From an uncultured Lachnospiraceae bacterium (GTDB lineage: Bacteria; Bacillota; Clostridia; Lachnospirales; Lachnospiraceae), in contig CANREG010000023.1 of NCBI GenBank assembly GCA_947629565.1, positions 1-43,133 of the forward strand: a stretch of DNA of 43,133 nt, given 5' to 3'. A program made the position numbers and the translations under genes. The notes beneath the pieces were generated by a model, which saw only the letters and a program-made list of their open reading frames with translations, ran no database searches and was not told the origin of the DNA. The stretch's first letter is position 1. Every line of letters starts with the position of its first letter. Shown piece after piece: positions 37,518 to 42,500 of this stretch.

Positions 37518-40466
37518 TTATTCTCTTTCTACAGAAAATACATATTCAGCGCTAATTATTGCCTCTGTTTTATCCTTTATCACAGTCCCACGATATGTAC
37601 CGACCTCCTGTGCTGCATTTACAATCGCTCCCGATATCTTCTGAAATGGCAGTGCGGTAATTGGTCTGATTTCTCCATCCTGCTCTATTCCCATGGATGC
37701 ATCATAAATTTGAGCAGGTATGTATTTCCCCTGTTCCACTCTGCCTTCAACCTCCACCGCCACATGATAATAAAACTGTTTCTCTTCTGGTGACTCCTCC
37801 AAGTGCCCTGCCGGATATATTTTATTTGTATGTAGCTCTTCATCTCTCTGTGGATTTATTATAAATACAAGCCTGAAATCAATTTTCAGTATATCTAAAT
37901 AGTAACCCAGAACAGCGGCATATACCTCACATTCTATATCCAGAGGTTCACGACGCTCCCCCTTTACATAGGCCGTCACATCCTGAAAAAATTTACCTTC
38001 TTTAAATTTAAGTATAGGTACACCGGCCTCCATCCGTCTTTCGACATATTCCGGAGTAGGAGCCCCCCAATACCTGAAACACGGAGCGAAAAAGATCATC
38101 TGTGTAAGTTGCCGAAGCTGCTCCTGTGTGTATTCTACATTATTTCTAACCACCCTTTCATCCTTAATTCCCTGTGTCTTTAACAGTTTCGCATAAATTT
38201 CCAGATATTCTACCGCCGGGAATCTTCCATCACAGCCTTTTTCCAATAAAATGGACGAAGCCGGTACTCCAGGAAGAATGTACACATCTGATATCGTATT
38301 TGGCATAGAAATAAACTTCCCATTTACCCTGCAGCTCCACCATAATTTTATCTGTGTAAATTGTATCCTTTGATCCACATCTGCCTTTACAGACGACTCC
38401 ATTTCCACCTCATAATCCACCTCAGCCTTTCTCCCCTGAGCCTTATATGTAAACTGGTCAAAAAGTTTGTTCTCCCCCTGCATAACTGTCGCCGAAAAAT
38501 CTACTGAATAGATTCCCGCCTTTACCTTTGAATTGTCCGTAATCCTGTATTTGATTTTAATTTTCACCTTGTCCAAATGATCCGCAATGTATACAGCAGG
38601 AGCCACACAGTGGTTTTCAGCGGTCCATTCTGGTCCGGTTATGGTTCCTTTCTGATTCCGGCACCTCACTGCGCTGACACCATACTGATCCGGGGAATGT
38701 TGAAAGGTAATAGAAAGAAGTTTTACAGAAATATCTTCCTCCTTCGGTTCATAGGGGTTATCCGGTTTATCCTTATGTAATTTATTAATATGTAAAACAA
38801 TGCTGCCAGCACTGATCACAGCAATTGCGGCACCGACCAGAAAAAGAACTTCATATTTTTCAAAGGTTGCTACAACAGCAGCCTCTCCAACTGCTACTGT
38901 TGTCTTCGACAAAAACTGAAGTGCCTTTGTCAATGTCTTTGCATATGCCTTCTTAAGAGAACTTACTGCCTGAACAACTTCTTTCGTCTCTATTTGGGCT
39001 TTCGCATACAGTTTCCATGCACTTTGCAGCATCTTTTCATGGTTTGATACATAATTTATCAGTGTTGCGATAACGCTACTGGATGCACAGCATGCACAGC
39101 CTGTCATGGCAGCAGCGAAATCAGTATAAGCGGTAACAAGCTGCTCCGCCTGCCAATATTTCATGTCAGAAGTTGCCTTCTTTGTATAATTCATCCGGAA
39201 CTGATATAGCTCTGAGGGAATCTTCTCCACTGTTCGCTGCGCCGGAAATATACCATCTTTCCCTGCAATAATTTCGATTCCATCTGTCAGTTCGCACGCC
39301 ATTCCTCCTTCAAAGGAAACAAGAGCAAGCAAATCATCCTCAAAAATAAAAGGATGGTTTTCCATAAAATCTGCCGCATCCTTTTCTGTCAGCACTTTTT
39401 CAAAAACGGCAACCGTATGAATATAGTTTTCACACAGCATCCCTGTATTTTTATCATATCCGCCTATCCTGAAATCGCCCGCTTTCTTCCGTACCAAAGC
39501 TGCCACGGCTGTCTTTTGACAAGCAGTCTGGTTGATATACGCCGAAACAGATTTTCCATCTACGCAGAGAATCACATCTACCCAACTATAGTCCGGTGCC
39601 TTGGCATCCAGACAGATTTCTTCCTCTCCATACTGAAAAATAAAAGCTGTCTCGTTCCCTGTTTTGTCACAATATACTGTTATACTGTCATCACACCCAG
39701 GGACTCCATTGGTAAAGAGAATCTGCCTTCCGGCTTCTCCCGGTCTTATGTACAACTTTATATAAATAGAAAATTTTCCAGAGGCAAATCCTCCCGGATT
39801 AATCGCCTCCGGTTCTGAAAAGGTGACAACTCCACCGTCTTTGGGGCAGTAAACATCCACCAGATCCATACATGTACATCCTGCACGGCTATACGCCGAA
39901 ACACCTTTTCCACTCAGATCCGGCATCCGTTCCTGTGTCATATCGATAAAACCGACCAGTTCCGGCATACTATCCGCCTTATACTCTGTCTGCATAAAAT
40001 ATTTGCGAAATGCCTGCTCATCCAATACCTCATTATACAGACGAAAACTTCGTACATACCCGGTAAATTCCTTTCCCAGCAGAAAATCATTATCATTTCG
40101 GATATTTCCCGAATAGGAGGTATTTCCAAAAATATTTCCATTTATCAATATGCTTATCTGTTTACTGTCGAAACCCATGCAAAGATTTACCCACTCATAT
40201 TCCGGTATCTGCAAAAACTCGCTTGAAATGACAAGAGTCTCCCCTGCTATTTTTAAAATAACCTTATTCTTCGCAATCCCCAAACTAAATCCATCTTCCT
40301 GAGAAACCAAAACGTTGCAGTCCCCATCCGCATAAAACCAGAGATCAAATCCGAAACATTCTCCAGAAAATTTTGCACCACTTATGGATATATCATGACC
40401 ATATTCAATGGTATTGTCAATCCTATATGCGGTATAGACATTTTTTACTTTATTTTCCATATTCAT
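37518..40466 (-). CDS. Large protein: two LamG-like domains, membrane segment, transglutaminase/papain-like Cys-His-Asp region
   Basis: A 982-residue protein I cannot name. Residues about 15-160 and 215-365 are two concanavalin/LamG-like jelly rolls (FDLWFYADGDCNVLVSQEDG, WVNLCMGFDSKQISILINGN; KFSIYIKLYIRPGE, WVDVILCVDGKSVSAYINQ). Residues about 430-535 look helical, with GCACC at 457-460. One membrane segment follows at 539-560 (EVLFLVGAAIAVISAGSIVL). The rest starts beta-rich and ends with C846 (DIECEVYAAVLGYYLDI), H901 (FYYHVAVEV) and D922 (QIYDASMG), in the order and spacing of a transglutaminase/papain-fold triad. There is no signal peptide. The start overlaps the upstream Hint gene stop as ATGA. 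The triad is inferred. Confidence 0.75.
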   Translation of the reverse strand: MNMENKVKNVYTAYRIDNTIEYGHDISISGAKFSGECFGFDLWFYADGDCNVLVSQEDGFSLGIAKNKVILKIAGETLVISSEFLQIPEYEWVNLCMGFDSKQISILINGNIFGNTSYSGNIRNDNDFLLGKEFTGYVRSFRLYNEVLDEQAFRKYFMQTEYKADSMPELVGFIDMTQERMPDLSGKGVSAYSRAGCTCMDLVDVYCPKDGGVVTFSEPEAINPGGFASGKFSIYIKLYIRPGEAGRQILFTNGVPGCDDSITVYCDKTGNETAFIFQYGEEEICLDAKAPDYSWVDVILCVDGKSVSAYINQTACQKTAVAALVRKKAGDFRIGGYDKNTGMLCENYIHTVAVFEKVLTEKDAADFMENHPFIFEDDLLALVSFEGGMACELTDGIEIIAGKDGIFPAQRTVEKIPSELYQFRMNYTKKATSDMKYWQAEQLVTAYTDFAAAMTGCACCASSSVIATLINYVSNHEKMLQSAWKLYAKAQIETKEVVQAVSSLKKAYAKTLTKALQFLSKTTVAVGEAAVVATFEKYEVLFLVGAAIAVISAGSIVLHINKLHKDKPDNPYEPKEEDISVKLLSITFQHSPDQYGVSAVRCRNQKGTITGPEWTAENHCVAPAVYIADHLDKVKIKIKYRITDNSKVKAGIYSVDFSATVMQGENKLFDQFTYKAQGRKAEVDYEVEMESSVKADVDQRIQFTQIKLWWSCRVNGKFISMPNTISDVYILPGVPASSILLEKGCDGRFPAVEYLEIYAKLLKTQGIKDERVVRNNVEYTQEQLRQLTQMIFFAPCFRYWGAPTPEYVERRMEAGVPILKFKEGKFFQDVTAYVKGERREPLDIECEVYAAVLGYYLDILKIDFRLVFIINPQRDEELHTNKIYPAGHLEESPEEKQFYYHVAVEVEGRVEQGKYIPAQIYDASMGIEQDGEIRPITALPFQKISGAIVNAAQEVGTYRGTVIKDKTEAIISAEYVFSVERE

Positions 40467-42052
40467 TCTCTCCCCTCATGTTTCATCTCTCGATTCAGTT
40501 CTGCTACCAATGCTTCAAATTCCTGCTGATATCCTTCTTTCTTCTGCAATGGTCGTTCCTCTTTCTTTCCTATCCGGTTCTGGCATCCAAAATCTCCTGT
40601 ATAAAATCCTTCTGCCACCAACGCCTCGTCTGAATCAATCCGAACGCTAAAAACTTCATCATTATATTCTAACAAATGCAATTCGTTGATCGAATCCTTT
40701 CCACCGTACATTTCCAGAATATCAGCCGCCGAAAGCTCATCTGCCCTCTTCCATCCATCCTGTGTCAGCATGGGATGATCCCGTGTCACGCAAATGCATT
40801 TCCCACTGCTCGTACCTATCATAGCCAGGGTTTCTTCCCTTCCCCGGATTACTTCTGTCACTATGGCAGAGCCTCCTCGTGTCATTATCTGATCCCCCTG
40901 ACGGATTTCCTCTATGAATTTTTCCGAGTGGTTCGCCATTAAAATGCGGGTTCCTTTTGCGAAACATCCCCATTCAATCGTAATGGGCTTGATTGCACAA
41001 TAGGAGGGATCCTCATGCCCAATATCCATGCTGGATATAACAATGGGAATAGCAATTCCCATTTCTGTCTCAACATACATCTTACAGTAAAACTGTGCAT
41101 CATTCGTCAAATAAAACTGGGATGAATCCAGCCAGTTATGCCAGTTTGACGGGAATTTCCATGACAATGTTCTGTCGGACACTGTCCATTCAATTTCATT
41201 CCAGAAACTCATATTAAAATTGGCTGCCCCTTTATCAATCAACTGCAGTACAAAGTCTTTATTTTTGTCTACATAAATCGGGGAAAATTCCTTCATAAAT
41301 GTTACAGAACCTGAGAAATCAATATTTACTTCCACCTTATTATCTTTTGTATTTACATTATTATAGTAATAATCACAACCCGGTCCTGTACGGTTATTAT
41401 AGTAGAGAACCGTGCTGTTGGCCTTTGGATGATACTTTGGCATGGGATCCTCCACCACCATTTTTTCAACAATGCTACTTTTCCCTAATACCTTCAGCGC
41501 ATCCGTTTGATGTGTTTCACTAACAATCCGTTCACACCCATCTTTGTCCTTTACAATCTTGTAAAATGTAGAAATTGCCTGAAATTCATAATCATCGCTT
41601 TTCATCAGGGAAACAGATTTACAACGCGACTCACCTTTGAGATTATGCGCATTGCTCGCTGCCACGGCAAAGCCATCTAGAGACTGATTGTTTGTCTTAT
41701 CATACAATTCTCCTACAATGGCCAGACTCTTATTTTCCTCCACCATAGACATTCCGGAGGAAGTATACGCATCAGTCTTGATGTCATAATTCAGCGTACG
41801 TATCCCTACGGAATCTGTCAATCCATAAGTATCCCCTTGGGGCAGTGAAGATTTCATAAGAGGAGCCGTCGTCAATCCGTTTGCTGCACGCCTCTCCTGT
41901 TTACTGCTGTAATGCAGAATCTTATACAATTCGGGACAGTTTTTTCTTAACCTGTCCTCTCCTCCCAGCTGTCTCATTACAAATTCAAATTCCTTTTCAT
42001 CAGCCAGATTGTGATGTGTTTTTACTGTTTGTTGATTTAATAATGTTCTCAT
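40463..42052 (-). CDS. Hint (intein/hedgehog-like) domain protein
   Basis: A 529-residue protein. Residues 363-about 490 form a Hint domain: nucleophile C363 in EWGCFAKGTRILMA, block A FIEEIRQGDQIMT, the TxxH motif VTRDHPMLTQDGW (T423, H426) and a terminal EALVAEGFYTGDFGCQN strand. Inteins end in His-Asn at this place; here the pair reads Gly-Asp, so C-terminal cleavage may be lost while Cys-driven chemistry remains possible. The first 360 residues are beta-rich in their second half and match nothing I know. A charged tail of about 37 residues follows. There is no signal peptide. AGAAGGAGG precedes ATG. It is coupled to the 982-residue gene. Confidence 0.8.
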   Translation of the reverse strand: MRTLLNQQTVKTHHNLADEKEFEFVMRQLGGEDRLRKNCPELYKILHYSSKQERRAANGLTTAPLMKSSLPQGDTYGLTDSVGIRTLNYDIKTDAYTSSGMSMVEENKSLAIVGELYDKTNNQSLDGFAVAASNAHNLKGESRCKSVSLMKSDDYEFQAISTFYKIVKDKDGCERIVSETHQTDALKVLGKSSIVEKMVVEDPMPKYHPKANSTVLYYNNRTGPGCDYYYNNVNTKDNKVEVNIDFSGSVTFMKEFSPIYVDKNKDFVLQLIDKGAANFNMSFWNEIEWTVSDRTLSWKFPSNWHNWLDSSQFYLTNDAQFYCKMYVETEMGIAIPIVISSMDIGHEDPSYCAIKPITIEWGCFAKGTRILMANHSEKFIEEIRQGDQIMTRGGSAIVTEVIRGREETLAMIGTSSGKCICVTRDHPMLTQDGWKRADELSAADILEMYGGKDSINELHLLEYNDEVFSVRIDSDEALVAEGFYTGDFGCQNRIGKKEERPLQKKEGYQQEFEALVAELNREMKHEGRE

Positions 42053-42120: not shown

Positions 42121-42149
42121 ATTATATTGATCCAATCAAAAATTGATAA
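42121..42149 (-). promoter_or_regulatory. Hint operon promoter with palindromic spacer
   Basis: Minus strand: -35 TTATCA (42144-42149), a 17-base spacer and -10 TATAAT (42121-42126). The spacer holds TTGAT-CCA-ATCAA (42127-42139), a perfect inverted repeat suited to a repressor. The remaining AT-rich gap to 42302 shows no gene. Confidence 0.5.
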
Positions 42150-42302: not shown

Positions 42303-42500
42303 TTATATAGTCAAATCAAAGAAAACCTGTCGTTTCCAGCATTTTTCTAAACGAAAATTCGGAACAAACTCATAATCTTTTGGTTCTGCCCCGAACGTAA
42401 CCTTACACACAGATAGCTCCCAATCTGACACATGTCCAAACACTCCCACCCAAAACGGTTCTTCAAAAAATACCGTCAACTTTCCCGTTTCAAGAATCAT
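42303..42500 (-). CDS. Short YjdF-like (DUF2992) protein, apparently truncated
   Basis: A 65-residue protein with the N-terminal signature of the YjdF/DUF2992 family: KLTVFFEEPFWVGVFGHVSD and KVTFGAEPKDYEF. Family members usually run to about 130 residues with a basic, helical tail; this one stops after WKRQVFFDLTI, and no reading frame downstream restores the tail. Its ATG overlaps the DUF488 stop as ATGA, so it is translated by coupling. It may be a decayed fragment or a genuine short variant. Confidence 0.65.
   Translation of the reverse strand: MILETGKLTVFFEEPFWVGVFGHVSDWELSVCKVTFGAEPKDYEFVPNFRLEKCWKRQVFFDLTI

What the first reader, a model, noticed from the sequence alone, without database searches (positions are those of the whole stretch)
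37518..42052. Coupled Hint-domain and LamG/transmembrane/Cys-His-Asp protein pair: candidate undescribed system
Seen: two genes overlapping by ATGA. The first has an unknown domain plus a Hint domain; the second has two LamG-like folds, one membrane segment and a C846/H901/D922 set resembling a transglutaminase or papain-fold enzyme. Known: Hint domains cut or join proteins, and in polymorphic toxins they release effectors. Inference: the Hint protein may process itself or its partner, and the large protein may be a surface-recognition plus enzyme effector. The block has lower GC than the flanking metabolic genes and has its own promoter. I do not recognise a described system with this pairing.
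Basis: partly seen in the sequence, partly recalled or inferred. Interest (0 to 1): 0.75.

Follow-up and report, generated by a model that had tools for sequence, protein, structure and literature searches.

The report
Paired self-cutting and transglutaminase-like proteins
Two neighbouring genes in a gut bacterium encode a probably self-cutting protein and a large protein that looks sugar-binding and perhaps transglutaminase-like; the pair is rare but stays together in distant relatives, and its job is still unknown.

Summary
In detail: a 529-aa protein with a C-terminal Hint domain overlaps by ATGA a 982-aa protein with two LamG domains, one strong membrane-type segment and C846/H901/D922. 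The pairing recurs: in 6 of 6 loci read with a full-length LamG partner (19-82% identity to the window) a Hint relative lies directly upstream, spaced -14 to +10 nt; these loci were found through the Hint gene, but searches by the partner's C-terminal domain found no full-length partner without it. Both genes are under purifying selection. The Hint fold is solid (Cys1, TxxH, profile match to solved Hint structures) but lacks the intein HN end and a C/S/T +1 residue, so N-terminal cleavage is likelier than splicing. The transglutaminase reading rests on weak evidence: the window and close relatives match the transglutaminase Cys helix, but the six-member profile does not separate transglutaminase from NlpC, AlphaFold models were useless, and the triad aligns in 4 of 6 members. 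No leader or conserved downstream gene was seen, so a classical polymorphic toxin is not supported. Hint relatives also stand beside other large proteins in other phyla. Best reading: a patchily distributed two-protein module of a self-processing Hint protein and a glycan-binding, papain/transglutaminase-like partner. New variant of a known kind; function inferred.

The parts
40463..42052 (-). Hint gene, 529 aa; no hydrophobic segment by hydropathy, no signal peptide by eye
40967..42052 (-). Residues 1-362: N-terminal module (start with an LGG..L....P..Y motif seen in most relatives, then a beta-rich domain ending P-I-x-I-x-W-G before Cys363); P203, D227, W304, W361, G362, C363 invariant in 9 of 9 aligned members, window included
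40574..40966 (-). Residues 363-493: Hint domain. Cys363, T423-x-x-H426, last strand AEGFYTGDFGCQN with G486-D487 in place of His-Asn and F488 at +1
40466..40573 (-). Residues 494-529: short charged C-terminal tail behind the Hint domain
37518..40466 (-). LamG/transglutaminase-like gene, 982 aa, overlaps the Hint gene by ATGA
39972..40466 (-). Residues 1-165: first LamG-like domain (approximate limits)
39327..39971 (-). Residues 166-380: second LamG-like domain (Pfam Laminin_G_3 226-363)
38742..39326 (-). Residues 381-575: helical region with a membrane-type segment at 540-558; a segment scoring 1.84-2.71 lies at the same place (starts 539-560) in all six members
38262..38741 (-). Residues 576-735: beta-rich domain (secondary structure from a low-confidence model only)
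37581..38261 (-). Residues 736-962: papain/transglutaminase-like domain; C846 (37929-37931), H901 (37764-37766), D922 (37701-37703)
42121..42149 (-). Promoter-like TTATCA-17-TATAAT upstream of the Hint gene; not evidence by itself

Best explanation
A patchily distributed, probably horizontally spread two-gene module. Shown: the genes are adjacent and stay paired over 19-82% identity of the big protein; the first carries an intact Hint active site (Cys363, TxxH) but not the splicing end; the second has two LamG domains, a membrane-type segment, and a C-terminal domain with a Cys-His-Asp set whose Cys helix resembles the transglutaminase core. Inferred: the Hint protein makes a thioester at Gly362-Cys363 and releases, or transfers to an acceptor, its 362-residue N-terminal module, as Hedgehog Hint and BIL domains do; the LamG protein binds a glycan or glycoprotein surface and its C-terminal domain modifies or crosslinks a target there. 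Whether the N-terminal module is what the partner binds or crosslinks is a guess.
For: Pairing in window, L002, L003, L020 (G082), L023 (G208) and L034 (G432), spacing -14 to +10 nt. L034 lies in another family of the phylum and was found with the N-terminal Hint module alone. Searches with the partner or its domain found no further full-length partner, hence none without a Hint gene: 3 of 299, 4 of 299, 2 of 54 with one decayed fragment, 1 of 5, 1 of 1, 1 of 391. Hint: Pfam above cut-off; nine-member profile hits solved Hint/BIL/intein structures, best E 9.6e-11. WGC junction, [TS]xxHP and G[DE]xxxQ occur in 10 of 10 Firmicutes members read; the +1 residue is never C/S/T in the 12 of 14 members where the end motif was found. 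Transglutaminase: the window-L002-L003 profile aligns ECEVYAAVLGYYLDILKIDFRLVF to the Transglut_core Cys helix (33% identity over 24 columns; score 30.6 against 7 chosen rows, 0 of 40 shuffles reach it; 28.0 against all 20 rows, 0 of 40 shuffles, best 18.2), while NlpC/P60 gives 13.4 (15 of 40 shuffles reach it). L003's domain hits PF01841 at 17.8 bits, E 0.0041, over the Cys-to-His part. H901 sits in HVAVEV, like HAWVE[VIA] in most collected transglutaminases (by eye). Transglutaminase-like part and last 53 residues evolve fastest (omega 0.66 and 0.96, helical part 0.54, LamG2 0.12, window vs L002).
Against: The loci were mostly found through the Hint gene, and profile A7 was trained on the members it finds, so '6 of 6' is partly by construction. 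No Pfam transglutaminase hit in the window domain; L003's is below the curated 23 bits, and in the same call an irrelevant family (Cytochrom_C552) hits L034 at E 0.0053, so that level is near chance. The six-member profile prefers NlpC (17.5, 0 of 40 shuffles) to transglutaminase (16.8, 3 of 40), and L020 and L023 alone match neither. With transglutaminases in the alignment their His does not fall in the H901 column in any of three settings, and L034's Cys and Asp shift. In L023 the Cys column holds Leu in 3 of 3 settings, its His aligns in 1 of 3 and Asp in 2 of 3; L020's His aligns in 1 of 3. Among 319 ORFs of fetched loci the best non-self match is an unrelated window ORF; four transglutaminase loci align by the Cys helix within the ten best non-self. 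No relevant PDB match for the C-terminal part. AlphaFold mean pLDDT 37.8 and 32.8.
Confidence: 0.45

Rival explanations
1. Polymorphic-toxin-like effector pair: conserved N-terminal LamG carrier, variable C-terminal part (transglutaminase-like in the window, extra 177-307 aa tails in relatives), with the Hint protein as a releasing factor in trans.
For: C-terminal part diverges fastest among close relatives; tails differ: about 20 aa in window, L002 and L003, related 292- and 307-aa tails in L020 and L023 (E 4e-10), and a 177-aa tail in L034 with no BLASTP match to either. HINT is a known processing domain in polymorphic toxins and transglutaminase domains occur there (PMC3482391, passages).
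Against: Hint is on a separate chain; no leader by hydropathy or Pfam; no small same-strand gene of 30 aa or more within 600 nt downstream is shared by the six loci, though L002 and L034 each have an unrelated 67-68 aa ORF there and the window a 49-aa one; PADLOC gave weak homing-endonuclease matches to the Hint part and a Cas4c match at E 0.036. Among distant members the C-terminal domain is not less alike than the LamG domains.
Confidence: 0.2
2. Structural, not enzymatic, partner: the papain/transglutaminase-like domain is partly degenerate and serves as a scaffold, as proposed for inactive transglutaminase domains in other bacterial proteins.
For: Triad uncertain in L020 and lost or shifted in L023; inactive transglutaminase domains, at times next to Ig-like domains, are described in PMC3482391 (passages).
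Against: Window, L002, L003 and the distant L034 keep all three residues when the six are aligned alone.
Confidence: 0.2
3. The C-terminal domain is another papain-like or unrelated fold and the Cys-His-Asp set is a coincidence.
For: Six-member profile slightly prefers NlpC/P60 to transglutaminase; no domain hit in the window; models uninformative.
Against: Window trio and L003 profiles against transglutaminases stand well clear of shuffles.
Confidence: 0.3
4. The Hint gene is an unrelated passenger and the pairing is accidental co-transfer.
For: Hint relatives occur beside other partners (L018, L019, L021, L022, L029, L035); loci were mostly found through the Hint gene.
Against: Adjacency within -14 to +10 nt at down to about 20% identity in different surroundings; partner searches found no full-length partner alone.
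Confidence: 0.08

Closest known systems
Hint superfamily: bacterial intein-like (BIL) and Hedgehog-type Hint domains
   Same: Hint fold, Cys1, TxxH; no C/S/T at +1, as BIL domains, which mainly cleave (PMC7664689, passages); best structural sequence matches 6tmm/6y75, and BIL 2lwy among them.
   Different: Ends in G-[DE]-x-x-x-Q instead of H-N; own conserved N-terminal module; coupled to a LamG/papain-transglutaminase-like gene.
[quoted passage not shown]
   Same: Bacterial proteins with a conserved N-terminal region and a divergent Hint at the C-terminus.
   Different: That group has two upstream cysteines in all members and signal peptides in some; the Lachnospiraceae members here show no signal peptide by eye and no invariant upstream Cys pair. 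Its sequences could not be compared here.
Vint (PF14623)
   Same: Window Hint passes the Pfam Vint cut-off; Vint proteins are thought to be processed inside the cell (PMC2362128, passage).
   Different: No VWA domain in the Pfam scan.
Polymorphic toxins with HINT or transglutaminase domains (PMC3482391, passages)
   Same: Hint, transglutaminase-like and TM/beta-rich parts; C-terminal tails vary.
   Different: Hint on a separate protein, no leader, no shared downstream gene, transglutaminase-like part on the C-terminal side with C, H and D kept in the window.
Transglut_core (PF01841)
   Same: Cys at the start of a helix, H in an H-x-x-V-E-V strand, Asp after a later strand (by eye).
   Different: Below the family cut-off; 18-23% identity between the window domain and its distant members.

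Membership tests
Hint superfamily | Cys1 nucleophile at start of the domain | tested here: met
   C363, invariant in 9 of 9 aligned members
Hint superfamily | Block B T/S-x-x-H | tested here: met
   T423-H426 in the window; [TS]xxHP found in 14 of 14 members read
Hint superfamily | Hint fold by profile | tested here: met
   Profile A1 to solved Hint structures, E 9.6e-11; Pfam above cut-off
Intein (self-splicing) | C-terminal His-Asn and C/S/T at +1 | tested here: not met
   G486-D487, +1 is F488; +1 is F, N, Y or L in the 12 of 14 members where the motif was found. Terminal Asp occurs in class 1 inteins (PMC7664689, passage), so C-terminal cleavage is not excluded
BIL domain | Hint lacking a +1 nucleophile, mainly cleaving | tested here: inconclusive
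   No +1 nucleophile; cleavage not testable; ends in G-D, not H-N
Vint | VWA-Vwaint-Vint architecture | tested here: not met
   No VWA in the Pfam scan
Transglutaminase-like (Transglut_core) | Pfam score above cut-off | tested here: not met
   No hit in the window domain; 17.8 of 23 bits in L003; L034, L020, L023 none
Transglutaminase-like (Transglut_core) | Cys-His-Asp triad conserved | tested here: inconclusive
   All three in 4 of 6 members aligned alone; His uncertain in L020, Cys and His in L023; columns shift when transglutaminases are added
Transglutaminase-like (Transglut_core) | Papain/transglutaminase fold | tested here: inconclusive
   Model pLDDT 37.8; profile match over the Cys helix only
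NlpC/P60 | Profile similarity | tested here: inconclusive
   Window trio 13.4, 15 of 40 shuffles reach it; six-member profile 17.5, 0 of 40
Polymorphic toxin system | Leader or signal for export | tested here: not met
   No N-terminal hydrophobic segment in either window protein; no Pfam leader domain
Polymorphic toxin system | Adjacent immunity gene | tested here: not met
   No small same-strand ORF within 600 nt downstream shared by the six loci
LamG | Pfam Laminin_G_3 above cut-off | tested here: met
   59.1 bits, cut-off 27.6, two stretches

The most novel reading that the evidence does not exclude
A new kind of protein-modification module: a Hint protein with its own conserved N-terminal domain activates that domain as a thioester and hands it to an acceptor, with a LamG-guided transglutaminase-like partner as receiver or crosslinker; the same Hint family heads several loci of very large proteins (LamG, FN3, LysM, giants up to 3,605 aa) across phyla, so it would mark an undescribed class of large self-processing surface assemblies.
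Probability: 0.15. Interest if true: 0.75.

Novelty: new variant of a known kind. Interest (0 to 1): 0.45.

Why it matters
To my knowledge (recalled), outside inteins, Hedgehog and polymorphic toxins little is known of what bacterial Hint domains do. Here is a Hint subfamily with its own end motif, its own N-terminal module and a recurrent partner whose possible chemistry (Cys thioester acyl transfer) could mesh with it. If it works as inferred it is a protein-attachment system in gut commensals that can be tested with two gene products.

Tried and rejected
Viral contigs: two scans found no relative. Phages: 9 records, all matching only around the Hint part of terminase, portal or hypothetical proteins, presumably inteins. 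Plasmids: no relative of the two LamG proteins tried. PDB by sequence: nothing for the LamG protein or its C-terminal part that makes sense; the Hint N-terminal module only touches Sas6/CBM74 at E 1.5, taken as chance. A first hhalign run used the global flag by mistake and gave almost no signal (window trio 18.3, L002 alone 19.8); the local run is. In some searches three control rows were wrong or missing (L058 dropped, L059 left out, L074 a wrong stretch in the NlpC set); one search repeats the test with 20 transglutaminase and 12 NlpC rows, and its less favourable six-member result is the one I use. Of the 12 of 299 family genomes matched by the Hint protein I left 4 (G112, G057, G283, G217) out of the family because only the Hint part matched; 8 of 299 remain. 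Splicing intein rejected (no C/S/T at +1). No description of this pair was seen in six searches of the held open-access library, judged from listings and starts of abstracts; passages of three papers were read.
Full report
The two genes are as described. ORF 40463-42052 (-) encodes 529 aa and ORF 37518-40466 (-) 982 aa; stop and start share ATGA. The upstream ATG has a good Shine-Dalgarno; a promoter-like site lies in front, but such sites are common in this stretch, many of them inside the genes. dN/dS between the window and two close relatives (L002, L003; the Hint gene of L003 is partial) is 0.17-0.39, so both are real genes. Within the big protein the LamG and beta-rich parts are most constrained, the helical part less, and the transglutaminase-like part and last 53 residues least.

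The Hint part is certain. Pfam Vint and Hom_end_hint pass their cut-offs, and a profile of nine members matches solved Hint, BIL and intein structures with E down to 9.6e-11. Cys363 follows W-G in a PIxIxWGC junction, and T423-x-x-H426 is present. Where an intein has His-Asn, this family has G-[DE], and the next residue is F, N, Y or L in the 12 of 14 members where the motif was found. BIL domains lack the +1 nucleophile and mainly cleave, and Hedgehog uses only the first N-S acyl shift (PMC7664689, passages read). So cleavage behind Gly362, with hydrolysis or transfer of residues 1-362 to an acceptor, is the likeliest chemistry. It is inferred, not shown; terminal Asp occurs in class 1 inteins, so C-terminal cleavage is not excluded.

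The partner has two LamG stretches, one hydrophobic segment at the same place in all six members (1.84 to 2.71; L002 and L023 have further marginal ones), a beta-rich part and the C-terminal domain. For that domain the evidence is mixed. L003's copy hits Transglut_core at 17.8 bits, below the 23-bit cut-off, and a senseless hit of similar E-value occurs in the same call; the window has none. The window-L002-L003 profile against transglutaminases from relatives scores 30.6 (7 rows) or 28.0 (20 rows), above all 40 column shuffles each time; against NlpC/P60 it scores 13.4, within the shuffles. The match covers only the 24-residue Cys helix. The three distant members (L034, L020, L023) score 20.6 against transglutaminases (0 of 40 shuffles) and 18.8 against NlpC (2 of 40). 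The six-member profile goes the other way: transglutaminase 16.8 (3 of 40), NlpC 17.5 (0 of 40). Among 319 ORFs of fetched loci, four transglutaminase loci align by the Cys helix within the ten best non-self matches, but an unrelated window ORF is best. With the six aligned alone, the triad agrees in window, L002, L003 and L034 under all three settings; in L020 Cys and Asp do and His under one of three; in L023 the Cys column holds Leu, His agrees under one and Asp under two of three. With transglutaminases added, their His falls outside the H901 column in all three settings and L034 shifts. I hold the domain to be transglutaminase-like at about 0.6, with possible loss of activity in some members. 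Structure prediction could not decide it.

Pairing. Six loci read carry a full-length partner: window, L002, L003 (Hint gene cut by the contig end), L020, L023 and L034. In 6 of 6 the Hint gene lies immediately upstream on the same strand, from 14 nt overlap to 10 nt gap. The five beyond the window were found through the Hint gene or its N-terminal module, so this count is biased; but searching with the partner or its domain (the draws overlap) gave no further full-length partner, only a decayed copy in G751. Neighbours differ from locus to locus (by eye). The distribution is patchy: Hint protein in 1 of 26 genomes of the own genus; 12 of 299 in a family draw, 8 of them with the N-terminal module (judged); module in 2 of 398 of a phylum draw, window and G432; partner domain in 4 of 299 and 1 of 391, the window itself. 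This fits an accessory module spread by transfer, which is inference.

Wider family. Relatives with the same N-terminal module and Hint stand beside other partners: L018 (DUF6765 protein), L019 (RHS-repeat protein), L022, and in L021/L041 a run of 1017, 1155, 434 and 3605 aa proteins. A like run with a Hint gene at its head recurs in Embleya (Actinomycetota) and Tistrella (Alphaproteobacteria, with a 2521-aa protein annotated LysM; the Pfam LysM score of 20.8 is just under its cut-off); the 1155-aa protein aligns at 25-28% identity. The N-terminal module is detected by profile in Tistrella but not in Embleya, Azospirillum or Pseudoalteromonas, where only the whole-protein profile matches. The run also exists without a detected Hint gene in four further plasmid loci read (the Mycetohabitans locus is cut at the record start), so 3 of 7 loci read have it; two further records were not read. 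By eye no signal peptide opens the Firmicutes Hint proteins with a complete start, nor the large proteins of L021, L029 and three of Tistrella; the Pseudoalteromonas relative starts with a signal-like segment. So the Hint protein may be a general maturation or attachment part combined with different large partners.

Mechanism. I favour a self-processing Hint protein working with a glycan-binding, papain/transglutaminase-like partner at a surface. A classical polymorphic toxin is less likely: separate Hint chain, no leader, no shared small downstream gene. But the C-terminal side varies fastest among close relatives and in its tails, though not among distant members, so an effector role stays open.

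Known or new. Hint, LamG and transglutaminase-like domains are known; BIL and Burglin's bacterial Hint group are the nearest kinds. I saw no description of this pair in six searches of the held open-access library. I file it as a new variant of a known kind.

Noticed in passing
L021 816-8840 with L041 1583-12400; L029 11416-25053; L035 10861-24453 and L042 12389-34721: Like loci in Lachnospiraceae, Embleya and Tistrella: Hint gene, then very large proteins, up to 2521 aa (annotated LysM) and 3605 aa; looks like an undescribed system. Found without a detected Hint gene in Nostoc, Mycetohabitans, Paenibacillus and Azospirillum B510 plasmid loci (L077-L080).
   Followed up: partly
L076 1245-1780 (G751): Decayed copy of the L034-type LamG gene (two pieces 97% and one 78% identical, with stretches between them missing) in a genome of the same genus.
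   Followed up: partly
L020 11076-11951, L023 5200-6120: Related C-terminal tails behind the transglutaminase-like domain with RCHxxS and NLRxGxxxWNxSI motifs; no Pfam family above cut-off, absent from the window protein and unlike the tail of L034.
   Followed up: partly
window 42303-42500: DUF2992 gene of 65 aa covers only positions 1-45 of a 132-position model, next to the edge of the Hint/LamG block: perhaps cut when the block was gained.
   Followed up: no
L019 7803-15936: RHS-repeat protein directly upstream of an 843-aa Hint protein and a 257-aa protein; the last two share a similar N-terminal start, and the Hint protein has a glycine-rich stretch.
   Followed up: no
L030 7557-15385: Pseudoalteromonas Hint relative begins with a signal-peptide-like segment and lies in a run with an M4 peptidase/PKD protein and a GEVED protein.
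   Followed up: no
L025 6229-8964 and L026 6695-9430: Hint match inside a DNA-methyltransferase-like protein (recognised by eye) in two near-identical phage-like stretches: presumably an ordinary intein, unrelated to the finding.
   Followed up: no
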